Positions 12,775 through 64,000 of a DNA stretch of 64,000 nucleotides are shown here, piece by piece (positions within the stretch are counted from its first letter, which is position 1; each line of letters opens with the position of its first letter). This DNA comes from Candidatus Bacteroides merdavium (GTDB taxonomy: Bacteria; Bacteroidota; Bacteroidia; Bacteroidales; Bacteroidaceae), in NCBI GenBank assembly GCA_019116805.1, contig DXAV01000089.1, positions 1 through 64,000 of the forward strand, written 5' to 3'. Under the pieces are notes generated by a model, which was given only the letters and a program-made list of their open reading frames with translations, did not search any database and was not told the DNA's origin. The position numbers and the translations under genes are program-made.

Positions 12775-12840
12775 AGAAAGCATTGTTTTCTCGAGCAGAA
12801 AACGATGAGTTCTTTGCAAGAAAACAGTGCTTTCCTGCAA
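12775..12840. repeat. Array A: three 22-bp palindromic units
   Basis: Units begin at 12775, 12797 and 12819, exactly 22 bp apart, each opening AGAAA and carrying an imperfect palindrome; the third has the core AAAACAGTGCTTT. The array fills the gap between the stop of the DUF2520 gene and the kdsC start. The same core recurs in arrays at 45.0 and 56.1 kb. Confidence 0.75.
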
Positions 12841-21789: not shown

Positions 21790-24700
21790 TTAGAAATTAA
21801 GACTAACTCCCAAAATACCCATAAAAGGACGAGGATAAATGTTGCTGTCATATCCACCGTTGACTTCAGGATCCAAGCCTTTATACTTAGTCACAGTAAA
21901 TACATTCTGAGCGGTAAAATAGATTCGTCCACCCAAAGCAAGCGCTCCTATCTTATCGAAGGAATAACCCAATGTTATGTTGTCACATTTCAGGTACGAA
22001 GCGTTCTGGATAAAGTAGTCAGACAAAGCGTCGGTTGAAGAAACTTGTTGCCAATTCTTCGGTCTTGCCATATCCAATACATTGTGCCATGTAGATCCGG
22101 AATAAGTACTGGAAGAAGACAGATTGGAATTGCTACATTCAACAGCATTGTAATTGTAATTACCCAAACTAGCACGCAAAGAGAAACTTAAATCCCAATT
22201 CTTATAAATCAACTTGGAGGTGAGTCCCATCAATACATCGGGATCTGCTTTCTTATAGAAATAACGGTCATCGCCATTGATTACACCATTACCATCACGA
22301 TCGACAAATTCGCCTTCAATGGGCTGGCCATTCTCATCGTAAACCTGCTGATAAGTGTAATAAGCAGTAGACGGCTGGCCTACTGTCCAACCCTTAATAC
22401 CATCCGAGCTTCCTGCACCTACGGCACTGCCACCGTATTGTACAACATAGTCATCGCCCTGACTGGCTACCAGTTCATCGATTTCATTGGAGTTCCAGGT
22501 TACATTATACCCAAGTTCCCAACTCCAGTCCTTCATCTGGATTGCACGCCATGTCAATGCCAGTTCCACACCTTGATTATGCAAGGAACCGATGTTGCTT
22601 GTCAGCTTATTGGAGAAATTTGAACCTGCGGCAATAAACACGGTATTGATCAAGTCCGTTGTTTTACGATAATAATAATCGATATTGGCCGTCAAACGGT
22701 TATTCCAGAAGCCCAAGTCAATACCGGCATTATAGGTTGTTGTTTTTTCCCAGGTCAGATCCGAATTATATGCATCGGGACGATAGGTTATTCCATTGCC
22801 GACAATCGGATAATAGGCGCCTTGAGAGTTAGGAGTATAAGATGCGAAATATGTATAATCGCCAATACCTTCCTGCTGTCCGGTAATACCATAGCCCAAA
22901 CGAAGTTTCATGTCAGACAGTACATCTACATCTTTCAAGAATGCTTCTTCCTTCAAACGCCAGGCCAAAGCAACTGACGGGAATATACCCCAACGATTAT
23001 CCGGGGAGAAACGTGAAGAACCGTCACCACGCAAAGTTGCCGTCAACAGATACTTGTCTTTATAAGAATAGTTCAAACGTCCAAAGAAAGAAACCAGATA
23101 GTTTTCAGTCTTATACAATGTATTCTCCGATGGATTATACTGTTGACCCGGGAATTCTTCGTGAGAGTCTTGATAGTATCCACAATAGAAATAATCAGTT
23201 TCTTTATGGAAGTGCTGCCATTCGTAACCAGCCATGATATCGAAATGGTGGTCTTCCGTAAAATCTTTCGTATATTGCGCATAGGCGTTCAATGAAAGAT
23301 TATAAGTATCCATCGTATTCCAACCATAGTTGCCATAATAATAGTTGCCCGTATTATAGAAATAGGGAGAATAGCTTTGATTGGTTTCTCCCGAAGACAG
23401 GTTCATACCACCATTGACATGCAGACGCAAATCTTCCAATCCATGTACCTTGTAGTCCAACTCCGCATTACCCATCAATACCTTGGACTTACCCGTATTG
23501 GTATGCAGATTCAAGATGGCCACAGGATTACCGACCGCCAGGTTGTTCACGCCATATTGCCAGACAGGATCATAATCTGAAGCATACGGCCACTGCCAGT
23601 ATCCTCCATAATTCTTCTGACCGACTTCCGTATTGTCATACACGGGCTTTGTCGGGTCCATCGAAGCGGCAGCACCGATAGCGCCTTCATCTGCATAATC
23701 GGTATTCGAATACATTCCCTTGGCATTCAGGTTGACATTCAAGTGATTGTCAAAGAATGAGGGAGCGATGTTAAAGCTTGCCGTATAACGCTCAAAATTG
23801 GAGGTTTTCAAGATACCGTTCTGATTGGTATAGCCGAAAGACACGCGGTAGGGCATGTTTTTCAAGCCTCCAGAGACCGTGATGTTATGGTCCGTGCTGA
23901 TAGCCGTACGATAGATTTCGTCCTGCCAATCGGTATTGGCGAACAAGTGGTTGCCGTTTGCATCATAATATCCCAAAGACTGATATTCGGCACTGTTCAA
24001 GAAGTCTTCGTCCGAATAGCCGAACAAGTTCTGGACATAGTCCATATAAGCAGGTCCGTCCAGAACGTCTACCGTATTCTTTACTTTACTAAACGATACA
24101 TTTCCATTGTAGGCAACTTTGGGTTTTGAACCTTTGGAGCCCTTCTTTGTAGTAATCAAAATGACACCGTTTGATGCTCGGGAACCATAGATAGCGGTTG
24201 CGGAAGCATCCTTCAACACTGTAAAGCTTTCAATATCATTCGGATTTACCATGGAAAGCGGATTGGACAAGCCTTGAACGCCATAACTGTCCATAGCCAA
24301 ACCATCGATTACAATCAACGGATCGTTCGAGGCGTTCAAGGAGGAACCACCACGAATGCGGATGGTAGCTCCACCACCCGGCTGACCACCATTGGTCTGT
24401 ACATTTACACCGGCAATCTTACCCTGCATCATGTCCTGAGCATTAGTTACCAAACCTCTGTTCATTTCATCGGGTTTGATAGCTGTTACAGAACCGGTCA
24501 AGTCGTTCTTTTTTACAGAACCGTAACCGATGACCACTACTTCACTCAGAAGTTCGGCATCATCCTCTAACGTAACGACTACCGAAGCTGCAGCAGCCAC
24601 CTCGGCCGTCTTGTAACCTATGAAGGAGACTTGCAAAGTGGCTCCCTGAGGAACCGTCAGTGTAAAGTTACCGTTCAGGTCGGTAATCGTACCGTTCGAC

Positions 24701-24864
24701 GTATTACCTTTTTCCACTACATTCGCGCCTATCACTTCAAGCCCCGTGGCGTCCTTCACAAAACCTTTCACGGTGACCGTCTGTGCATAAGCGCCTACAC
24801 ACAAGAACATCCCTAAAAAAAGGGTAAGAATCATTTGGTAGATTCTAAGATTAACTTGCTTCAT
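21790..24864 (-). CDS. susC: SusC-type TonB-dependent outer-membrane importer
   Basis: 1,024 residues from ATG 24864 (MKQVNLRIYQMILTLFLGMF). Signal peptide ending CVGAYAQ. A CarboxypepD-like domain (TVKGFVKDATGLEVIGANVV) precedes the TonB box region and plug (EVVVIGYGSVKKNDLTGSVT; GGGATIRIRGGSSLNASNDP; VLKDASATAIYGSRASNGVI), then the roughly 700-residue barrel ending in the aromatic FMGILGVSLNF. It imports maltooligosaccharides with SusD, driven by TonB. First gene of the susCDEFG unit, preceded by a promoter, a dyad at the probable start site and a LacI-type operator. Confidence 0.96.
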   Translation of the reverse strand: MKQVNLRIYQMILTLFLGMFLCVGAYAQTVTVKGFVKDATGLEVIGANVVEKGNTSNGTITDLNGNFTLTVPQGATLQVSFIGYKTAEVAAAASVVVTLEDDAELLSEVVVIGYGSVKKNDLTGSVTAIKPDEMNRGLVTNAQDMMQGKIAGVNVQTNGGQPGGGATIRIRGGSSLNASNDPLIVIDGLAMDSYGVQGLSNPLSMVNPNDIESFTVLKDASATAIYGSRASNGVILITTKKGSKGSKPKVAYNGNVSFSKVKNTVDVLDGPAYMDYVQNLFGYSDEDFLNSAEYQSLGYYDANGNHLFANTDWQDEIYRTAISTDHNITVSGGLKNMPYRVSFGYTNQNGILKTSNFERYTASFNIAPSFFDNHLNVNLNAKGMYSNTDYADEGAIGAAASMDPTKPVYDNTEVGQKNYGGYWQWPYASDYDPVWQYGVNNLAVGNPVAILNLHTNTGKSKVLMGNAELDYKVHGLEDLRLHVNGGMNLSSGETNQSYSPYFYNTGNYYYGNYGWNTMDTYNLSLNAYAQYTKDFTEDHHFDIMAGYEWQHFHKETDYFYCGYYQDSHEEFPGQQYNPSENTLYKTENYLVSFFGRLNYSYKDKYLLTATLRGDGSSRFSPDNRWGIFPSVALAWRLKEEAFLKDVDVLSDMKLRLGYGITGQQEGIGDYTYFASYTPNSQGAYYPIVGNGITYRPDAYNSDLTWEKTTTYNAGIDLGFWNNRLTANIDYYYRKTTDLINTVFIAAGSNFSNKLTSNIGSLHNQGVELALTWRAIQMKDWSWELGYNVTWNSNEIDELVASQGDDYVVQYGGSAVGAGSSDGIKGWTVGQPSTAYYTYQQVYDENGQPIEGEFVDRDGNGVINGDDRYFYKKADPDVLMGLTSKLIYKNWDLSFSLRASLGNYNYNAVECSNSNLSSSSTYSGSTWHNVLDMARPKNWQQVSSTDALSDYFIQNASYLKCDNITLGYSFDKIGALALGGRIYFTAQNVFTVTKYKGLDPEVNGGYDSNIYPRPFMGILGVSLNF

Positions 24865-25025: not shown

Positions 25026-25039
25026 TGCAAACGATTGCA
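25026..25039. promoter_or_regulatory. LacI-family operator upstream of susC
   Basis: TGCAAACGATTGCA, a near-perfect dyad with the central CG typical of LacI/PurR-type operators. The exact reverse complement occurs at 29264-29277 by the lacI-type gene. It lies 56 bp upstream of the susC -7 box. Confidence 0.8.
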
Positions 25040-25076: not shown

Positions 25077-25109
25077 TCGGGTATCCCCACACGGCGCAGG
25101 GATACCCGA
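25077..25109 (-). terminator. Terminator of the GH53-GH2 transcript
   Basis: Perfect 11-bp stem TCGGGTATCCC (25077-25087) / GGGATACCCGA (25099-25109), followed on the reverse strand by TTTCTTTTTC. It separates the GH2 gene from the susC control region. Confidence 0.85.
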
Positions 25110-25150: not shown

Positions 25151-25311
25151 GGCTGACGACTTCTCCGGCGGGTCTTCCTGACGAAGCACTGCATGACCCT
25201 CTGACGAAGTGCTTTCTGAGGGTGTGACGAAGTGCTTCATCAGAGTGTCATGCAGTGCTTCGTCAGGAGGTAAGGAAGTGCTTCGTCAGAGGGTCAGAAA
25301 GCACTTCGTCA
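25151..25311. repeat. Array B: six to seven 23-bp palindromic units
   Basis: Read leftward from the GH2 stop codon, six units of exactly 23 bp (boundaries 25311, 25288, 25265, 25242, 25219, 25196, 25174) and a degenerate seventh. Each is based on TGACGAAGTGCTTCGTCA plus a 5-nt spacer such as CCCTC. The first three units keep the left half TGACGAAG, the next three keep the right half CTTCGTCA, so the whole array is itself a dyad. It contains the GH2 stop and lies before its terminator, so it is transcribed. Confidence 0.85.
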
Positions 25312-27786
25312 GCGCGTCACGTCGAACGTGAGCTTGGCAGACTTCAAACCTTTGGCCTTTGCCTCGAACACCAGCTGGCCGGCTTCGGTACCCGTCTGCA
25401 CGATGGCCGTCAGCTGGCCGCTGAAGGCGTGCATGCGCGGCAGGTGGAAGAGGTCCAGACAGGTGGCGTCACCATTGGCGGCCGCACGATAGGTACCCGC
25501 TCCCTTGACGGAGAAGGTCACCAGGCGGTTGTCGGCCGGGCAGAGGTTGCCGTCCTTGTCCACCACGCGGACGGTGATGTAAGCCAGGTCCTTGCCGTCG
25601 GCCGTGAGCTGCATGCGGTCGGCCACCACTTCCAGGTGATGGGGCTTGCCGGCCGTGCGCACAATCTTCTCTTCGGCGGGGCGGCCGTCCTTGTCGTAAG
25701 CCACAACTTTCAGTTCACCGGCTTCGTAGGGCACATCCATCCACATCAGGCGGTAGCGGCGTTGCAACCACAAAGCATCTTTTTCCTTCAACGAAAGCGC
25801 TGTTTTCGCATCCAGTTTACGCTGCTTTCCGTAGCTCTTCCCATTGACGAAGAGTTCAGCTTCGGGGTAGCTGGTATAGACAAAGACGGGGGTGTTCTCC
25901 CCTTCCCTGCCGGGCCAGGTCCAGTGGGGTAATACATGGAGGGTGTTGTCGCGCTTGTTCCAAAGGCTGCGATAGAGGTAGTAGCGGTCCTTGGGCAAAC
26001 TGGCCAGGTCGATGATGCCGAACACGGAGCTATGGCTGGGCCATGCGTCGGTGTCGTAGGGCGAAGGTTCGCCCAGATAATCGAAGCCTGTCCAGACGAA
26101 CTGGCCGAGTGTCCAGTTGTAATCGTCGGCCAAAGCAAAGTCCTCATCGGGCACATTCGACCACGAGCAGGCCTCCAGATCGTAACCCGAACACTGATGG
26201 TCGTCATACATGGCCTGCTTCTTTAACTCGACAGGGAACTTATAGACGCCACGCGAGCTGACGGTGGAAGCCGTCTCGGAGCCCAGCACCAGGTTTTGCG
26301 GCAACTGGCCGTAAGCCTCCACATAGCGATGCGTGCGGTAGTTGAAGCCAGGCACATCGAGCATGGCGGCAAAGCCATTGCCCAAGACGCAGGATACCTG
26401 ATCCATGCCGCAGGTGACGGGGCGTGTGGGGTCTTCGCGATGGCAGATGTCTTGCAGGAACGAAGCCACCTTGTAGCCTTCAGGGCTGCACTGGGTAGGC
26501 ACTTCGTTGCCAATGCTCCACATCACCACGCTGGGGTTGTTGCGATACTGGCGGAGCATGTTCACCATGTCCTTCTCTGCCCACTCGTTGAAGAAGCGGT
26601 GGTAACCGTTCTCACACTTGGCGATATCCCATTCGTCGAAAGGCTCGAGCATCATCATGAAGCCCATCTCATCGCAGAGCTGCACCAGCTCGGGCGCAGG
26701 CATGTTGTGGGCGGTGCGGATAGCGTCGCAGCCCATATCCTTGAGCAACGTCAGCTGGCGGCGAAGGGCGGCCACATTGATGGCGGCACCCAGCGGGCCG
26801 AGGTCGTGATGATTACATACTCCCTGAAACTTGCGATGCTTGCCGTTGAGGAAGAAGCCCTTGTCGGCCACCAGCTCGATGCTTCGGATACCGAAGCGGG
26901 TGACGTATTCGTCCACCTGACGGCCGTCCACGTATATCTTCGAAGAAGCCTTATATAAATAAGGTGTCTCGGGGCTCCACAACTGAGGCTTGTCCACGAG
27001 GAAGTTCTGCTCGAAGGGCTTGCCGTGGTTGATTTTCATTGTATTGTCCTTCACGGCCACCACCTGTCCCTCGGGCGAAAGGATTTCGGTGACGATACGC
27101 ACATCCTGCCGGCCGGCACCCTCGACGGTAGTCTTCAGGCAGACGGAGGCATAGTCGGCGGCTACGTGGGGCGTGGTGAGCTGGGTACCCCATACGGGCA
27201 CATGCACCGCCTCCGTGGCCACGACACGCACGTTTCTGTACAAGCCCGCACCCGGATACCAGCGGGAAGACTGGGGGCGGTTCTCCAACCGTACGGCCAA
27301 TACGTTCGGCTGACCATCTTTATATATATAAGGTGTAACGTCGCAATGGAAGGAATTGTAGCCGCAAGGCCAGAAGCAGGCTTCCTGCCCGTTGACGTAA
27401 ACACGGGCCTCGCTCATGGCGCCGTCGAAAACGAGCGACACCTGCTTGCCCGCAGGAGCGTCGAACGTGGTACGATACCACCCCACTCCCACGTAGGGTA
27501 AGCCGCCCGTGCGGCCTGTCTTCACCGAAGCGGCCGTCTCGAGGTTCTGCGTCACGGCCACATTCTGCAAGTCGTTGCTACGGTCGAAGGGACCGTAGAT
27601 GGCCCAGTCGTGGGGTACGGTGACCGTCTCCCACTTCGTGTCGTCAAACTCCGGCTTCATGGCTTCGGCCACGTCACCCTTCGTAAATCTCCAGTTCTTC
27701 TCCAACAACGTTTCCGTGCGTTGTTGGGCGGCCACCATCCAGGCCAACAACAAGCAACACAAGGTTGCCAACATTCTTCGATTCAT
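25309..27786 (-). CDS. GH2 beta-galactosidase
   Basis: 825 residues from ATG 27786 (MNRRMLATLCCLLLAWMVAA, a signal peptide ending AQQ); the longer ORF runs into the upstream gene. GH2 layout: sugar-binding domain (WETVTVPHDWAIYGPF; GVGWYRTTF), Ig-like domain, TIM barrel with acid/base E428 in MWSIGNEV and nucleophile E504 in VLGSETAST, and a C-terminal Ig-like region (VFVYTSYPEAELFVNGKSYG; YITVRVVDKDGNLCPADNR). The DYLGEPSPY motif is typical of Bacteroides beta-galactosidases. With the GH53 enzyme 7 bp upstream it would finish degradation of beta-1,4-galactan in the periplasm. Much more GC-rich than the sus genes next to it. Confidence 0.93.
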   Translation of the reverse strand: MNRRMLATLCCLLLAWMVAAQQRTETLLEKNWRFTKGDVAEAMKPEFDDTKWETVTVPHDWAIYGPFDRSNDLQNVAVTQNLETAASVKTGRTGGLPYVGVGWYRTTFDAPAGKQVSLVFDGAMSEARVYVNGQEACFWPCGYNSFHCDVTPYIYKDGQPNVLAVRLENRPQSSRWYPGAGLYRNVRVVATEAVHVPVWGTQLTTPHVAADYASVCLKTTVEGAGRQDVRIVTEILSPEGQVVAVKDNTMKINHGKPFEQNFLVDKPQLWSPETPYLYKASSKIYVDGRQVDEYVTRFGIRSIELVADKGFFLNGKHRKFQGVCNHHDLGPLGAAINVAALRRQLTLLKDMGCDAIRTAHNMPAPELVQLCDEMGFMMMLEPFDEWDIAKCENGYHRFFNEWAEKDMVNMLRQYRNNPSVVMWSIGNEVPTQCSPEGYKVASFLQDICHREDPTRPVTCGMDQVSCVLGNGFAAMLDVPGFNYRTHRYVEAYGQLPQNLVLGSETASTVSSRGVYKFPVELKKQAMYDDHQCSGYDLEACSWSNVPDEDFALADDYNWTLGQFVWTGFDYLGEPSPYDTDAWPSHSSVFGIIDLASLPKDRYYLYRSLWNKRDNTLHVLPHWTWPGREGENTPVFVYTSYPEAELFVNGKSYGKQRKLDAKTALSLKEKDALWLQRRYRLMWMDVPYEAGELKVVAYDKDGRPAEEKIVRTAGKPHHLEVVADRMQLTADGKDLAYITVRVVDKDGNLCPADNRLVTFSVKGAGTYRAAANGDATCLDLFHLPRMHAFSGQLTAIVQTGTEAGQLVFEAKAKGLKSAKLTFDVTR

Positions 27787-29138: not shown

Positions 29139-29222
29139 CGGGGAAAAGCTTTCCCTCAGTGAAAGAAAGGCCTTCCCTTTTAAAGAGAAAGGCTTTCCCC
29201 TTTAAAGGGAAAGACTTTCTCA
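29139..29222. repeat. Array C: four 22-bp palindromic units
   Basis: Dyad centres at about 29148.5, 29170.5, 29192 and 29214, 22 bp apart. Cores vary around GGGAAAGGCTTTCCC with short A/T-rich spacers such as TTTAAA. It lies in the divergent gap between GH53 and the lacI-type gene, next to the operator at 29264. A related AAAGACTTT stands at 29112-29120, off register. Confidence 0.75.
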
Positions 29223-29263
29223 CAGCAAAAAACACAGGAAGAAAATCCACCCCGCAGGTCCAA

Positions 29264-29277
29264 TGCAATCGTTTGCA
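29264..29277. promoter_or_regulatory. LacI-family operator in the GH53/lacI intergenic region
   Basis: TGCAATCGTTTGCA, the exact reverse complement of the site at 25026-25039. It lies about 240 bp upstream of the GH53 -7 box and about 120 bp upstream of the regulator's own -7 box. Confidence 0.8.
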
Positions 29278-29423: not shown

Positions 29424-30428
29424 ATGAACAAACCTCAAATCACCATCAAAGACATCGCACGAGCACTGAATGTATCGCCCTCGACCGTCTCAAGAGCATT
29501 GAAGAACAATCCTGACATCAGCCAGGAAACGCGCGACATGATACATGCTTATGCCAATGAACACAATTATAAGCCCAATGTACAGGCCGTAAACCTAAGA
29601 GCAGGACGCAGCAACACCATCGGCGTCATTGTACCACAGATGGTGCATCACTTCTTCTCTTGTGTATTAAGCGGGATTGAACAGGCCGCTTCTAAAGCCG
29701 GTTACAACATCATTGTGGCACAAAGCAACGAATCGTACGAACAGGAAGTCAAGATAGTCCATTCTTTTCTTGCCGCCCGTGTATGCGGCGTCATCGCCTC
29801 ACTGGCCAAAGAGACAGCCCGATATGACCACTACCAGGAACTGCTGAACAACGACATCCCCATCGTCTTCTACGACCGCATCTGTACAGGTATTAAAACA
29901 GAACGGGTGGTAGTCGATGACTATGCCGGCTCGTTTGCCGCCGTAGAATACATGATACAGACAGGATGCAGACGCATATTCTTCTATGGAGCCGCCCCCC
30001 ATCTGGAAATCACCAAAAACCGACGCAACGGCTATCTGGACGCCATGAAGAAATATAAGATACCGGTGGACGACCAGATGATACTCCTCTGTGACACCCG
30101 CGAACGGGCCATCGCCATCACACCCGATCTGCTGGAAAGCCCTGAACGTCCTGACGGTTTCTTTGCCATCAACGACGAAACAGCCGCCGGCATTCTATAT
30201 GCCTGCAAACTGGTGGGAGTCAAAGTACCCGACGAAGTGTCCATCTGCGGATTTACAGACGGTGCCATCGCTCAAAACACCGATCCCAAGCTGACTACCG
30301 TAGGGCAACATGGCGAAGAAGTCGGCATCAGTGCATTCGGCATCCTGCATGAGAAACTGGAAGGAGACATCAAGGCTTCCAATAAAATCGTACGTACCAA
30401 TTTGATTGTCAGGGGAACGACCAAATGA
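29424..30428 (+). CDS. LacI-family transcriptional regulator of the starch/maltose locus
   Basis: 334 residues from ATG 29424. The LacI HTH is at residues about 5-25 (TIKDIARALNVSPSTVSRAL) with the hinge region NYKPNVQAVNLRAGRSNTIG, then the periplasmic-binding-protein-like sensor domain (IGVIVPQMVHHFFSCVLSGI; GFFAINDETAAGILYACKLV; VSICGFTDGAIAQ). It should bind the TGCAAACGATTGCA-type sites at 25026 and 29264 and respond to a sugar, probably maltose or a maltooligosaccharide given its neighbours. In the reference Bacteroides starch system the regulator is the membrane protein SusR; here a cytoplasmic LacI-type protein takes that position, as in other Bacteroidetes maltodextrin loci. Downstream MFS and GH65 genes are co-directional. 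Confidence 0.9.
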   Translation: MNKPQITIKDIARALNVSPSTVSRALKNNPDISQETRDMIHAYANEHNYKPNVQAVNLRAGRSNTIGVIVPQMVHHFFSCVLSGIEQAASKAGYNIIVAQSNESYEQEVKIVHSFLAARVCGVIASLAKETARYDHYQELLNNDIPIVFYDRICTGIKTERVVVDDYAGSFAAVEYMIQTGCRRIFFYGAAPHLEITKNRRNGYLDAMKKYKIPVDDQMILLCDTRERAIAITPDLLESPERPDGFFAINDETAAGILYACKLVGVKVPDEVSICGFTDGAIAQNTDPKLTTVGQHGEEVGISAFGILHEKLEGDIKASNKIVRTNLIVRGTTK

Positions 30429-36134: not shown

Positions 36135-36242
36135 TTTCCAACTCTTTTTATCGGGTGCCGCACAAGCAGTACCTTCTGTTCATATTTATATTAATAACCT
36201 GATAATCAGTACTCATTTTTTCAGGTCACATTTCCCGAAAAC

Positions 36243-36352
36243 CTGAAAGGTCTTCAGGCCTGACCTGAAAGGGCTTCAGGTAGGGACTGAAGGGTCTTCA
36301 GGCAGGAACTGAAAGGTCTTCAGGTAGTACCTGAAAAATACCTGAAAACATT
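36243..36352. repeat. Array D: five 22-bp palindromic units
   Basis: Units start at 36243, 36265, 36287, 36309 and 36331, exactly 22 bp apart. The first four are 16-bp dyads close to CTGAAAGGTCTTCAGG with 6-bp spacers CCTGAC, TAGGGA, CAGGAA and TAGTAC; the fifth is degenerate. It lies between the CPBP-protease stop and the aminotransferase start. Confidence 0.88.
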
Positions 36353-38016: not shown

Positions 38017-38814
38017 ATGACCAAAGCTCTGTTTTTCGACATCGACGGAACGCTCGTCAGCTTCCGCACCCACGAAATACCCGCCTCGGCCGTCGAGGCA
38101 CTGGCTGCCGCCAAGGCCCGGGGCCACCGCATCTTCATCGCCACCGGCCGCCCGCGCGTCATCATCACCAACCTCGGCGCCCTGCAGAGTCGGGGGCTGA
38201 TAGACGGCTACGTCACCATGAACGGAGCCTACTGCTTTGTGGGCGACGAGGTGATCTACAAAAGCGCCATACCGACCGAGGACGTCCGCACACTTACCGG
38301 CTACTGTGCCCATCGCCACATTCCCTGCATCGTGGTGGGCGAACACGACATCTGCGTCTGCCAGCCCGACGACCGCGTGCGCCAGATCTTCTACGAGCAC
38401 CTCAAGGTGAGCGTCCCCATCCCCGACACGCCCCTCCACGAAGCCATCGACGGCAAGGAAATCTTCCAGCTGACACCCTTCCTCGACGAAGCGCAGGAGG
38501 CGGAAGTATTGCCTTCGCTCTCCTGTTGCGAGATGGGCCGCTGGCATCCGGCCTTTGTCGACGTCACCGCCCGCGGCAATACCAAGCAGCGCGGCATGGA
38601 CGAAATCATCCGCCACTTCGGCATCCGCCTCGAAGACACCCTTGCCTTCGGTGACGGAGGCAACGACATCCCCATGCTGCGCCACGCGGGCATCGGCATC
38701 GCCATGGGCAACGCCCGCGACGAAGTGAAAGCCGCCGCCCGCTACGTCACCGACACGGTGGACGAGGACGGAATTGCCAAAGGCATAATGAAATGGTTAG
38801 CGGTTAGTGGTTAA
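38017..38814 (+). CDS. Cof-type HAD phosphatase
   Basis: 265 residues. Motif I FFDIDGTLVSF, motif II IFIATGRP, large C2-type cap between (about 85-190), motif III lysine in RGNTKQRGMDEI, motif IV FGDGGNDIPMLRHAG followed by GIAMGNARDEVKAAA. Cof-like enzymes dephosphorylate sugar phosphates, flavin precursors or pyridoxal phosphate with broad specificity. The last residues (KWLAVSG) are encoded by the start of the heptamer repeat at 38794, so the natural C-terminus appears to have been rewritten by the repeat. Confidence 0.9.
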   Translation: MTKALFFDIDGTLVSFRTHEIPASAVEALAAAKARGHRIFIATGRPRVIITNLGALQSRGLIDGYVTMNGAYCFVGDEVIYKSAIPTEDVRTLTGYCAHRHIPCIVVGEHDICVCQPDDRVRQIFYEHLKVSVPIPDTPLHEAIDGKEIFQLTPFLDEAQEAEVLPSLSCCEMGRWHPAFVDVTARGNTKQRGMDEIIRHFGIRLEDTLAFGDGGNDIPMLRHAGIGIAMGNARDEVKAAARYVTDTVDEDGIAKGIMKWLAVSG

Positions 38815-38898
38815 CGGTTAGTAACTAACCACTACATACTAACCACTAACCACTAACCACTAACCACTAACCGCTAACCACTAACCGCTAACCGCTGA
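38794..38898. repeat. 7-bp-period array forming a long hairpin
   Basis: Four G-rich heptamers (GGTTAGC, GGTTAGT, GGTTAAC, GGTTAGT; 38795-38822) face about ten C-rich heptamers of the complement (ACTAACC/GCTAACC; 38824-38895). The halves can pair into a stem of nearly 30 bp. It supplies the last six codons and stop of the HAD gene and ends 4 bp before the helicase start codon. Confidence 0.85.
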
Positions 38899-41321: not shown

Positions 41322-41416
41322 AAAATGAAGAATGAAGAATGGAAGCTCTGCTTCCGAATGAAGAATTATTCCGTACGCTTGGAAATTCTTCATTCTTAAT
41401 TCTTCATTCTTCATTT
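41322..41416. repeat. 7-bp-period A/G to T/C hairpin repeat
   Basis: ATGAAGA-type heptamers on the left (from 41325) and their complements (ATTCTTC, ATTCTTA, ATTCTTC, ATTCTTC) on the right up to 41415 can pair, enclosing a second small hairpin GGAAGC-TCT-GCTTCC at 41340-41354. It lies between convergent genes and may act as their terminator. Confidence 0.75.
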
Positions 41417-42237: not shown

Positions 42238-42272
42238 GTCTGATCAATTTATAAGGTTAGTAATAATAGTAA

Positions 42273-42352
42273 TGGTGAATGATGAATGGTCAATGGTAAA
42301 TGTCCGTCCGGATGGGATGGTTACTAACCGCTAACCACTAACCGTTAACCGC
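42273..42352. repeat. Two heptamer tracts between fprA and nagB
   Basis: First tract: TGGTGAA, TGATGAA, TGGTCAA, TGGTAAA (42273-42300). Second tract: CTAACCG/CTAACCA-type units (42323-42352) running up to the fprA stop, the same sequence family as the array at 38.8 kb. Confidence 0.75.
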
Positions 42353-43552
42353 TTATTCCCGGTCCTTCTTCAGGCGGTTGGCCATGGCACGGGCCAGGTG
42401 CTCGCACTGCTCGTAGGTGATGTCCTTCATGGCCTGCTTCATCTCCACAGGGTCGCCCACGATTTCCAGCTTGCTCTTCTCGGCAAACTCGGCCATACGC
42501 TTCACGGCAGCTCCGGCCCAGGTGAACGAGCCGAACCATCCCAGATAGCGTCCCTTCACTTCGCGGAGCAGTATCTTGGAGAGAAGCGACTCCACTTCGG
42601 GATAAATCTGGTTGCAATACGTGGGGCTGCCCACGATAAGGCCGCGATATTTGAAGATATCTTTCAGTATATATGAAGGATTGCTCTTGCTTACGTTGTG
42701 CATCACAATGTTCTTGATACCTTGGGCAGACAGCTCGGCGGCAATGGCTTCGGCCATCTGCTCCGTATTGCCATACATGCTGCCGTAGGCGATGACCACG
42801 CCTTCCTCGGCCTCGTAGCGGCTCAGGCGGTCGTAAACACCTACAACGCGGGCAATGTTCTCCGTCCACACCGGCCCGTGGGTTGAACAGATGGTCGTAA
42901 TGGGCAGGTGTCCCAGCTTGGCCAGTGCCTTCTGCACGGGGTTGCCATACTTGCCCACGATGTTGGAGTAGTAACGCACCATTTCCTCCCAGTACTTGTC
43001 TAGGTTGATGCGTGTGTCGAGGAAGCCGCCGTCCAGCGTACCGAAGCAACCGAAGGCATCGCCGGCAAAGAGGATGCCGTCGGTTTCGTCGAAAGTCATC
43101 ATCGTCTCGGGCCAGTGGACCATCGGCGTCAGATAGAATTTCAGTTTATGGTGACCCAGGTCGAGCATCGACTCGTCCTTCACCTCGTAGCGGTCGCCCG
43201 TCACGCCATAATAACCCTCGATCATGCCGAAGGTCTGCTTGTTGCCCACGATGACAATGTCGGGGTAGTGCTGCTTGATAAGGCGGATAGATCCCGAGTG
43301 GTCGGGCTCCATGTGGTTGATGATGAGGTATTGGATGGGGCGGTCGCCGATGATGCAACGGATTTTGCGCAAATACGTCTCGAAGAAGCACGCGTCCACG
43401 GTGTCCACCAGGGCCACGATGTCGTCGTCTATCAGATACGAGTTGTAAGAAACACCGTAGGGCAAAGGCCACATTCCTTCGAAAAGGTGTTTGTTACGGT
43501 CGTTCACTCCCACGTAATGTACTTTTCCTTTAATCAATGTTTTCTGATTCAT
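42353..43552 (-). CDS. Flavodiiron protein (oxygen/NO reductase)
   Basis: 399 residues from ATG 43552 (MNQKTLIKGKVHYVGVNDRN); a longer start is excluded by the promoter box at 43599-43606. N-terminal metallo-beta-lactamase-like diiron domain with ligands NHMEPDHSGS (HxExDH), PMVHWPETMM and the Asp/His in GDAFGCFG and STHGPVW; C-terminal flavodoxin domain with FMN loop AYGSMYGNTEQMAEA and VGSPTYCNQIYPEVESLLSK. FDPs reduce O2 to water or NO to N2O with electrons from rubredoxin, protecting anaerobes. No rubredoxin gene adjacent. Confidence 0.95.
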   Translation of the reverse strand: MNQKTLIKGKVHYVGVNDRNKHLFEGMWPLPYGVSYNSYLIDDDIVALVDTVDACFFETYLRKIRCIIGDRPIQYLIINHMEPDHSGSIRLIKQHYPDIVIVGNKQTFGMIEGYYGVTGDRYEVKDESMLDLGHHKLKFYLTPMVHWPETMMTFDETDGILFAGDAFGCFGTLDGGFLDTRINLDKYWEEMVRYYSNIVGKYGNPVQKALAKLGHLPITTICSTHGPVWTENIARVVGVYDRLSRYEAEEGVVIAYGSMYGNTEQMAEAIAAELSAQGIKNIVMHNVSKSNPSYILKDIFKYRGLIVGSPTYCNQIYPEVESLLSKILLREVKGRYLGWFGSFTWAGAAVKRMAEFAEKSKLEIVGDPVEMKQAMKDITYEQCEHLARAMANRLKKDRE

Positions 43553-44700: not shown

Positions 44701-44900
44701 AGCGTTACGTTACAATTGTTACAGCGTTACAATTAATTTTTCCCCAATTTTCCACTCCAGACAAAAGAGAATGTTAAATATTTTAATACTATATATATTA
44801 TATATTTATATATAATATATATAGTATTAATTTTCTTTTCCCAGTTTTCCTGTTACAGATTTGCTAATTGTAATTTGTAACAATTGTAACGCGTAACGCT
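44701..44900. repeat. 200-bp nested inverted repeat, A/T-rich, with GTTAC motifs
   Basis: Outer arms: 44701-44723 (AGCGTTACGTTACAATTG...) pairs with 44875-44900, differing by a 2-bp insertion. Middle arms: TTACAATTA near 44728-44736 with TAATTGTAA near 44865-44873. Inner arms: 23 bp perfect, 44783-44805 with 44808-44830, almost pure A/T. All are centred near 44801-44806. GTTAC occurs four times on the left and GTAAC three times on the right. A tract TTTTCCC-AATTTTCC is repeated directly (about 44738-44754 and 44835-44850). No gene fits; it occupies the divergent gap between the radical SAM and DPP-IV genes. Confidence 0.85.
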
Positions 44901-44979: not shown

Positions 44980-45070
44980 AGAAAACGCTCCGACGCCCGA
45001 CGAAAAGCACCGCTTCGAGCACACGAAAACAGTGTTTTGCGCCCTGCAAAACAGCATGTTAGTTTTATTA
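44980..45070. repeat. Array E: four units of about 22 bp
   Basis: AAAA-beginning cores at 44982, 45003, 45026 and 45048 (spacings 21, 23, 22). The third is a perfect palindromic core AAAACAGTGTTTT, shared with array A, array F and the single copy at 7293. Confidence 0.65.
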
Positions 45071-56034: not shown

Positions 56035-56112
56035 AAACAGCCTTTTCCTGCAAAACGATGCTTTTCGGGCAGGAAAAGGCTGTTTTCTTCCTCGTAAAAC
56101 AGTGCTTTTTCC
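56035..56112. repeat. Array F: about four units of 22 bp
   Basis: Dyad centres at 56058.5, 56080 and 56102.5 (AAAACGATGCTTTT, AAAAGGCTGTTTT, AAAACAGTGCTTTT), with a degenerate unit before them near 56040. Same core family as arrays A and E. It lies between GH43 and the HAD gene. Confidence 0.7.
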
Positions 56113-63745: not shown

Positions 63746-64000
63746 TGTTTTAATAGTAGGGGTATATCAAACCACATGAATTCGAAACAAAACCAAAAAA
63801 ATAGCAAGTTACCCGTCATGGGCATACCTGCATAGCCTGTAAAGCCCAACTATCGTCGTACTTTTCCTCAAGTCCATAGTTACGCCGCTAAAGTGGGTGT
63901 TTAGCGCGCTAAAGTAGATAGTTACGGAACTCATCTGAACTATAACAGAGACCGCCAAGTGTATGATAATTTTAAGCTCAACGCTCACGTTTATCCCTTG
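63746..64000. other. Non-coding tail of the window
   Basis: No credible gene in the last 255 bp. It contains array G (63857-63940). Confidence 0.6.
63857..63940. repeat. Array G: units of 21 bp with dyad cores
   Basis: CGCTAAAGT recurs 21 bp apart (63886, 63907) and ATAGTTACG 42 bp apart (63876, 63918). The middle unit holds the perfect 14-bp palindrome TTTAGCGCGCTAAA. A degenerate unit ACTTTTCCTCAAGT lies at 63860-63873. Confidence 0.65.

What the first reader, a model, noticed from the sequence alone, without database searches (positions are those of the whole stretch)
25151..25311. Intergenic arrays of 21-23-bp palindromic units, each array with its own palindrome (best case: array B)
Array B is six units of exactly 23 bp, each a variant of TGACGAAGTGCTTCGTCA plus a 5-nt spacer. 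Similar arrays occur at 12775, 29139, 36243, 44980, 56035 and 63857, all between genes, all with a 21-23-bp step and a dyad in each unit, but with different palindrome sequences. Period and architecture are kept while sequence is not, which ordinary repeat families do not do. The step is two DNA helical turns, which would suit binding by a repeated or polymeric protein; as RNA, each unit is a small hairpin. Array B is also a dyad as a whole (three left-preserved units, then three right-preserved). I know of no named element with this description.
Basis: seen in the sequence. Interest (0 to 1): 0.85.

Follow-up and report, generated by a model that had tools for sequence, protein, structure and literature searches.

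The report
Phase-locked palindrome ladders between genes
Bacteroides-type gut bacteria carry many short ladders of palindromes between their genes; the rungs sit 22 or 23 letters apart even where the palindrome itself has changed, which suggests an unknown cell component reads the spacing, although this has not been shown.

Summary
Array B (25179-25311) is six units at exactly 23 bp, one of 32 arrays of one family in fetched own-genome DNA and 30 in fetched Mediterranea massiliensis DNA. A scan of 437 kb of M. massiliensis for any period plus dyad gave 30 intergenic hits, 25 of them at step 22 or 23, against about 0.5 in all from controls; coding DNA gave one hit at 22. Many palindromes share the step, and families differ between genomes. 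'Each array its own palindrome' is only partly right: most belong to multi-copy families. In 20 orthologous family-B pairs spacer sequence is free but length is not: two interior indels, both 23 nt, against 87 in 5694 bp of flank; no out-of-phase units lie beside arrays above chance. Arms do not covary, against compensated RNA hairpins. Family B sits at gene ends and convergent gaps; other families do not. In one related MAG the array rides in a MITE-like element of at least 40 copies, recalling BrickBuilt. Best reading: a ladder of inverted half-sites, spread by a MITE-like carrier and kept as a cooperative DNA-binding platform. The protein is inferred, not found.

The parts
25179..25311 (.). 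Array B: six 18-bp dyads (consensus TGACGAAGTGCTTCGTCA) at exactly 23 bp; units start 25179, 25202, 25225, 25248, 25271, 25294
   Evidence: orthologous array in M. massiliensis (L044/L089)
25309..27738 (-). Upstream gene (GH2 beta-galactosidase-like); its stop codon TGA (25309-25311, minus strand) is the outer end of unit 6
21790..24810 (-). Next gene, SusC-type TonB-dependent receptor, 368 bp from the array
12775..12835 (.). Array A: three F2-type units, 22-bp step. The orthologous site in M. massiliensis holds units of another palindrome (GAAACCATTGGTTTC type) at the same step
29139..29223 (.). Array C: four units, 22-bp step (GGGAAAGGCTTTCCC type), divergent gap, conserved in M. massiliensis
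36242..36324 (.). Array D: four units, 22-bp step (CCTGAAAGGTCTTCAGG); flanked by TTTTTTCAGGT and ACCTGAAAAA arms
45002..45040 (.). Array E: only two F2-like units, 22-bp step
56050..56110 (.). Array F: three F2 units, 22-bp step; the orthologous site is similar by eye but under the scan threshold in M. massiliensis
63867..63929 (.). Array G: three 21-bp direct repeats (CTAAAGTAGATAGTTACG-like), weak dyad

Best explanation
Array B is a ladder of about twelve alternating inverted half-sites (T-S-A-Y-R-M-A-G), on average 11.5 bp apart, belonging to a family of about 30 intergenic copies. It was probably spread by a MITE-like element and then kept, mostly just after stop codons and between convergent genes, because something reads the half-sites at a fixed helical spacing. 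The likely reader is a DNA-binding protein whose dimers occupy neighbouring dyads cooperatively, making a nucleoprotein patch at the border of a transcription unit. Shown: exact step, dyad-symmetric constraint, free spacer sequence with fixed length, no arm covariation, placement at gene ends (family B), conservation at orthologous sites, array-bearing MITE-like copies in one related MAG. Inferred: the protein, the cooperative binding, the boundary role and the order spread-then-kept.
For: 20 orthologous pairs, 2307 array bp: substitution 0.01-0.03 at positions 3, 8, 11, 16; 0.05-0.06 at 7 and 12; 0.17-0.25 at 2, 4, 15, 17; 0.20-0.29 in the spacer; interior indels 2, both 23 nt; flanks 87 in 5694 bp. 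The exact step is not made by the search: clusters taken without any step rule have all offsets in multiples of 23 (21 own arrays; 23 loci), and within 100 bp of the 62 arrays unit-like matches at >=9 bits are 1 in phase and 0 out of phase. Unit number 3:1, 4:4, 5:36, 6:19, 7:2 of 62. Arms independent (F2). 0 of 62 inside genes; convergent 23, tandem 26, divergent 7, undetermined 6, against background gaps 53/190/86. Central TG/CA polarity makes most arrays dyads as a whole, as expected of duplex DNA.
Against: No candidate protein and no binding data. Many families with the same step would need many specificities or a reader that tolerates sequence change. Non-B hits show no gene-end bias: tandem 26, divergent 12, convergent 5, undetermined 8, background 219/91/61 (a few of these 51 hits are simple repeats). 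Arrays fold more stably than shuffles as RNA (family-B group means of z -2.4 to -4.3). Strand symmetry is not perfect: of 26 tandem family-B arrays read in sense, six have only TG centres and none only CA. On the sense strand arms drift towards G-U rather than A-C (95 v 52), though arm composition alone gives that (93.5 v 55).
Confidence: 0.42

Rival explanations
1. RNA reading: transcribed into 3' UTRs, each unit is a small hairpin and the series protects or ends the mRNA.
For: Close to stop codons: 18 of 27 own family-B arrays with a neighbouring 3' end lie within 50 bp of it (counted from the table; 5 further own arrays have no neighbouring 3' end). Folding z-scores negative. Sense-strand G-U excess over A-C (95 v 52). 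A terminator-like module of the G024 tail has five places in the own genome, four within about 0.4 kb of a B array, and five in M. massiliensis, two within about 0.2 kb.
Against: Arms pair less than random arms (0.442 v 0.511 at variable positions; 740 v 764 +/- 11). F2 arms: G-C plus A-T 28 of 82 units, 33.5 expected from the margins (counts, expectation by hand). Sense and antisense fold equally well in tandem arrays. Non-B arrays occur in divergent gaps. RNA hairpins would not need a fixed 5-nt spacer.
Confidence: 0.25
2. Selfish MITE-borne minisatellite like BrickBuilt, without host function; arrays are relics.
For: The tail matches at least 40 places there (40 of 62 candidates were scored). 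An ACGTGANNTCGAC-like end lies near 5 of 20 G024 places at <=1 mismatch, against 12 of 620 random positions; such ends are inverted in some copies and resemble the MITE239 end printed in PMC4596501.
Against: Near the 62 own and M. massiliensis arrays such ends are not above random (2 of 62 v 12 of 620 at <=1 mismatch). Arrays stay at the same sites (26 of 31 array-bearing orthologous gaps have one in both) with interiors free of other-length indels while flanks decay. Neutral relics should collect indels.
Confidence: 0.2
3. DNA-topology device: phased dyads that bend, wrap or extrude DNA (for example a gyrase- or HU-type site) at gene ends; sequence matters little, phase matters.
For: The same 22/23 step in many palindromes; array A differs in palindrome between species without an indel in 62 bp; family-B bias to convergent gaps.
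Against: Very strong conservation of four half-site letters inside family B points to base-specific reading. No curvature or gyrase test was made.
Confidence: 0.13

Closest known systems
BrickBuilt MITE of Porphyromonas gingivalis (PMC4596501)
   Same: 23-nt tandem repeats, intergenic, 19 copies in one strain, Bacteroidales; in G024 the array plus a tail, with inverted ends on some copies
   Different: BrickBuilt has 1-22.8 repeats with leader and tail in its full form; here 3-7 units (55 of 62 have 5 or 6), interior indels only of 23 nt, no TIR-like end above background in Mediterranea, and many other families with the same step. Whether BrickBuilt units are dyads in a locked phase was not tested.
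REP/BIME elements with RAYT transposase
   Same: Extragenic imperfect palindromes in clusters, near gene ends; CGTC-tagged repeats are reported from Bacteroidetes among other phyla (passage of PMC3733652)
   Different: No Y1_Tnp hit in G000, G007 or G024; fixed 23-bp step; CGTC lies inside both arms of the consensus and not at one end (not formally tested)
CRISPR arrays
   Same: Regularly spaced palindromic units
   Different: Spacers only 5 nt and degenerate; units imperfect; many small loci. No cas search was made.
Iterons and Mu/Tn7-type repeated transposase sites (recalled, not looked up)
   Same: Repeats of about 22 bp read by a cooperative protein
   Different: Those are direct repeats at one origin or transposon end; here inverted half-sites at many gene borders

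Membership tests
BrickBuilt-type MITE | 23-nt tandem repeat, intergenic | tested here: met
BrickBuilt-type MITE | Leader and tail with terminal inverted repeats | tested here: not met
   Only one end type was sought: near the window's family in G000/G007 it is at background. A tail and TIR-like ends occur on G024 copies
BrickBuilt-type MITE | Repeat number varies widely (1-22.8) | tested here: not met
   3-7 units, 55 of 62 with 5 or 6
BrickBuilt-type MITE | Sequence similarity to the BrickBuilt repeat | not tested
   no named P. gingivalis sequence was fetched
REP/RAYT | RAYT (Y1_Tnp) gene in the genome | tested here: not met
   0 hits in G000, G007, G024; control genomes ring in 5 of 14. G000 is 85.55% complete; G033, with few B hits, has one Y1_Tnp hit
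REP/RAYT | Extragenic imperfect palindromes, clustered | tested here: met
REP/RAYT | GTAG or CGTC tag at one end of the unit | tested here: inconclusive
   Logo read by eye: both ends alike, T-S-A; CGTC occurs inside the arms
CRISPR | Near-identical repeats with long unique spacers | tested here: not met
   5-nt spacers
Structured RNA family | Match to an Rfam family | tested here: not met
   0 matches at gathering score in the window
Structured RNA family | Compensatory pairing between arms | tested here: not met
   F2 counts
Cooperative protein-binding array | A protein bound to the units | not testable with these tools
   needs pull-down or footprinting

The most novel reading that the evidence does not exclude
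A class of intergenic elements, in Bacteroides-type genomes and perhaps across Bacteroidales, defined by geometry and not by sequence: about three to six dyads at 22 or 23 bp. The palindrome can be exchanged over evolution while phase and site are kept, because a general chromosome component reads inverted half-sites every 11-11.5 bp between genes.
Probability: 0.3. Interest if true: 0.87.

Novelty: new variant of a known kind. Interest (0 to 1): 0.7.

Why it matters
If the density in 437 kb of M. massiliensis (25 arrays) is typical, a 3.9 Mb genome holds about 200 of these ladders, and family B is protected from indels where its flanks are not. A geometry-defined element would point to an undescribed chromosome-organising or transcription-border system in gut bacteria, and it is testable by pull-down with one 133-bp probe.

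Tried and rejected
Tried without result: Rfam on the window (none); Y1_Tnp/RAYT (none in the three main carriers); arm covariation at all unit distances (tandem arrays again); sense-strand G-U excess, which looked like RNA evidence but is explained by arm composition; sense versus antisense folding; empty-site comparison for insertion boundaries (two candidate loci, both only diverged gaps, no clean junction); a MITE239-like end near the G000 and M. massiliensis arrays (not above random positions); the B. thetaiotaomicron near-palindromic promoter motif PM2 (-10/-30 elements, no link seen, its sequence not compared).

Considered and rejected: chance; coding repeats (0 of 62 family-B arrays inside genes); CRISPR; simple minisatellite drift (unit number and phase too fixed); an exact step made by the search rule.

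Weaknesses: own-genome loci and 28 M. massiliensis stretches were chosen for family B, so family counts there are not densities. The PWM families C, I, J leaked into F2 and are not used for counts; families were sorted by eye. Gene calls are from my own codon-bias caller. Family names F2, K, H and so on are mine. Ortholog statistics rest on one species pair: of 32 own arrays 24 had a flank match, 22 were aligned and 20 used; L013/L065 and L011/L099 were dropped because the arrays did not align as orthologs, and L021 and L071 earlier because only the arrays matched. Four of the 20 pairs have small indels in the outermost 9 bp. The script stopped at its last line (saving) after printing its counts; the arrays were recomputed. 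Single hits in G117 and G090 are near the level of their controls. Literature: in the open PMC library showed no description of such arrays; subscription papers are not covered. What I saw of papers: PMC4596501 abstract, sections 5 and 8, first part of section 7; PMC7366714, PMC2267715, PMC3733652 and PMC5771137 only passages from a word search; PMC1590033 a word search with no passage; other papers only as listings.

Full report
What is there. Array B (25179-25311) consists of six imperfect 18-bp dyads with 5-nt spacers at exactly 23 bp. It lies just 3' of a GH2 beta-galactosidase-like gene on the minus strand, whose TGA stop codon is the outer end of the sixth unit, and 368 bp from a SusC-type gene. 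The window is contig C49 of a 2.94 Mb, 99-contig, 85.55% complete assembly.

It is a family. The 18-mer has 53 forward and 55 reverse matches at up to 3 mismatches in the own genome, against 3 and 6 for the reversed pattern. A symmetric PWM chained at 23 bp finds 32 arrays in the 607 kb of own DNA fetched and 30 in the 364 kb of M. massiliensis fetched at that point, with 0 in shuffled and 9 in reversed sequence. Both sets of loci were chosen because they held a match, so these are counts, not densities. Unit numbers are 3:1, 4:4, 5:36, 6:19, 7:2. Similar arrays occur in Caecibacteroides pullorum and an uncultured Bacteroides MAG. Of 148 related genomes searched with up to 2 mismatches 48 have at least one match, but only G000 (20+22), G007 (23+26) and G024 (48+42) have more than four.

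The step is not made by the search. Clusters taken without any step rule have all their offsets in multiples of 23, in 21 own arrays and in 23 loci of named genomes. Within 100 bp of the 62 arrays, unit-like matches of at least 9 bits number one in phase and none out of phase, 0.7 expected by chance.

The step is general. A scan that fixes no sequence (three consecutive dyads plus self-similarity, steps 14-35) over 112 kb of own intergenic DNA gave 33 hits at step 22, 33 at step 23 and at most 4 at any other step, with 2 in a second-order Markov control. Over 437 kb of one M. massiliensis contig, steps 12-40, the intergenic hits were 19 at 22, 6 at 23, 2 at 21 and one each at 12, 14 and 16; the control mean was at most 0.1 per step, and 336 kb of coding DNA gave one each at 12, 22 and 24. 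Four other genomes of the same genus in this collection, 100 kb each, gave 2, 2, 2 and 3 hits at step 22 with quite different palindromes; other steps gave 2, 2, 2 and 2, and the controls 0, 0, 1, 1. A few of these nine look weak by eye. In five genomes of other families of the order, 80 kb each, the class is sporadic: G106 has two 23-bp arrays of one palindrome, G090 one at 23, G117 one at 22, G094 and G096 none at 22 or 23; five control runs summed to between 1 and 5 hits per genome. 100 kb of E. coli K-12 has none.

Families in this genome (hits sorted by eye): B at 23 bp; F2 AAAGCATTGCTTT at 22 bp, 14 arrays including window 12775 and 56050; K TTTAAGCTGGGCAAA, 5; H TATGTTTCAAACATA, 4; D CCTGAAAGGTCTTCAGG, 3 including window 36242; C, I, J and a GTTTTCCCTCG type, 2 each. 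Many share AAA/TTT half-sites, so they may be related by descent. GCAAAGCTTTGC units lie 22 or 44 bp apart at three places in M. massiliensis, while G000 has only scattered single hits, so families turn over.

Conservation. Of 104 own intergenic gaps with an M. massiliensis counterpart, 31 hold an array in at least one species: 26 in both, 3 only in own, 2 only in M. massiliensis (most of these loci were chosen for family B). One own-only case, window 56050, is similar by eye at the orthologous site; another is a weak 21-bp hit. Twenty orthologous family-B arrays, 2307 aligned bp, show dyad-symmetric constraint: 0.01-0.03 substitutions at unit positions 3, 8, 11 and 16, up to 0.25 at 4 and 15, and 0.20-0.29 in the 5-nt spacer. 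Interior indels are two, both exactly 23 nt; a third 23-nt event and six small ones lie in the outermost 9 bp; the flanks have 87 in 5694 bp. So the spacer is free in sequence and fixed in length. Nine non-B pairs give two 1-nt indels, both in one pair, in 558 bp, against 50 in 2251 bp of flank. At window array A the own units read GAAAGCATTGTTTTC, GAAAACGATGAGTTC, GAAAACAGTGCTTTC; the M. massiliensis site has GAAACCATTGGTTTC, GAAACCGATAGTTTC, GAAACCAATGGTTTC. One alignment gives 22 substitutions and no indel in the 62 bp; another, with cheaper gap extension, opens several gaps. The palindrome differs in every unit while the 22-bp step is kept.

DNA or RNA. If units were RNA hairpins, the two arms of a unit should covary. 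At the variable positions they pair in 0.442 of cases against 0.511 for random arms; in tandem contexts 740 pairs against 764 +/- 11 with arms permuted between arrays and 748 +/- 10 within arrays. F2 units show no excess either: G-C plus A-T in 28 of 82, 33.5 expected from the margins (counts, expectation by hand). A sense-strand excess of G-U over A-C (95 v 52) disappears against permutation (93.5 v 55). The centre dinucleotide is TG in left-half and CA in right-half units of most arrays, a dyad of the whole array; array B departs from it, and six of 26 tandem arrays have only TG in sense while none has only CA. These facts suit half-sites read separately on duplex DNA. They do not exclude RNA roles: the arrays fold better than shuffles on both strands.

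Place. None of 62 family-B arrays is inside a gene: convergent 23, tandem 26, divergent 7, undetermined 6, against 53/190/86 among gaps of at least 100 bp in the same loci. Orthologs are counted twice here; own alone gives 11, 15, 2 and 4 undetermined. Non-B hits follow background.

Origin. The tail has at least 40 places in that genome, 40 of 62 candidates having been scored. ACGTGANNTCGAC-like ends lie near 5 of 20 G024 places at up to one mismatch, 12 of 620 at random positions; in some copies they stand inverted at both sides, and they resemble the MITE239 end in Table 2 of PMC4596501. In the own genome the terminator-like part of the tail has five places, four of them within about 0.4 kb of a B array; in M. 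massiliensis two of five (with array positions). No such MITE ends are found near own or M. massiliensis arrays above background. So a MITE-like carrier can spread the array, and in Mediterranea mostly the array alone seems to have been kept.

Verdict. The nearest known things are BrickBuilt and REP/BIME elements; defining features of each were tested and not met for the window's copies. I file it as a new variant of extragenic palindromic repeats, with a fair chance that the geometry-defined class deserves its own name.

Noticed in passing
window 38795-38893, 41385-41415, 42271-42353: Intergenic 7-bp tandem repeats (ACTAACC, ATTCTTC, AATGGTG types); the dyad scan also found step-14 repeats of this kind in M. 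massiliensis.
   Followed up: no
window 25026-25039 and 29264-29277: Two copies of a 14-bp palindrome TGCAAACGATTGCA/TGCAATCGTTTGCA, one before the SusC gene and one before a LacI-family gene (29424-30428); looks like that regulator's operator.
   Followed up: no
window 44778-44831: TA-rich palindromic tract with a counterpart near M. massiliensis C24:410375.
   Followed up: no
window 25078-25108: Strong GGGTATCCC...GGGATACCC stem-loop between array B and the SusC gene, terminator-like.
   Followed up: no
L034: Contig labelled Oscillospiraceae MAG (Lapin-008 bin55) carries a family-B-like array; a misbinned Bacteroidaceae contig seems likely.
   Followed up: no
L162-L182 (G024): MITE-like element of about 500 bp carrying the 23-bp array, a GTCCTGTCACA inverted module and a terminator-like stem, at least 40 places.
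   Followed up: partly
L156:8239 and L156:9678 (G106): Two 23-bp arrays of CTCACAAGTTTGTCAGTTTT in a genome from another family of the order.
   Followed up: no
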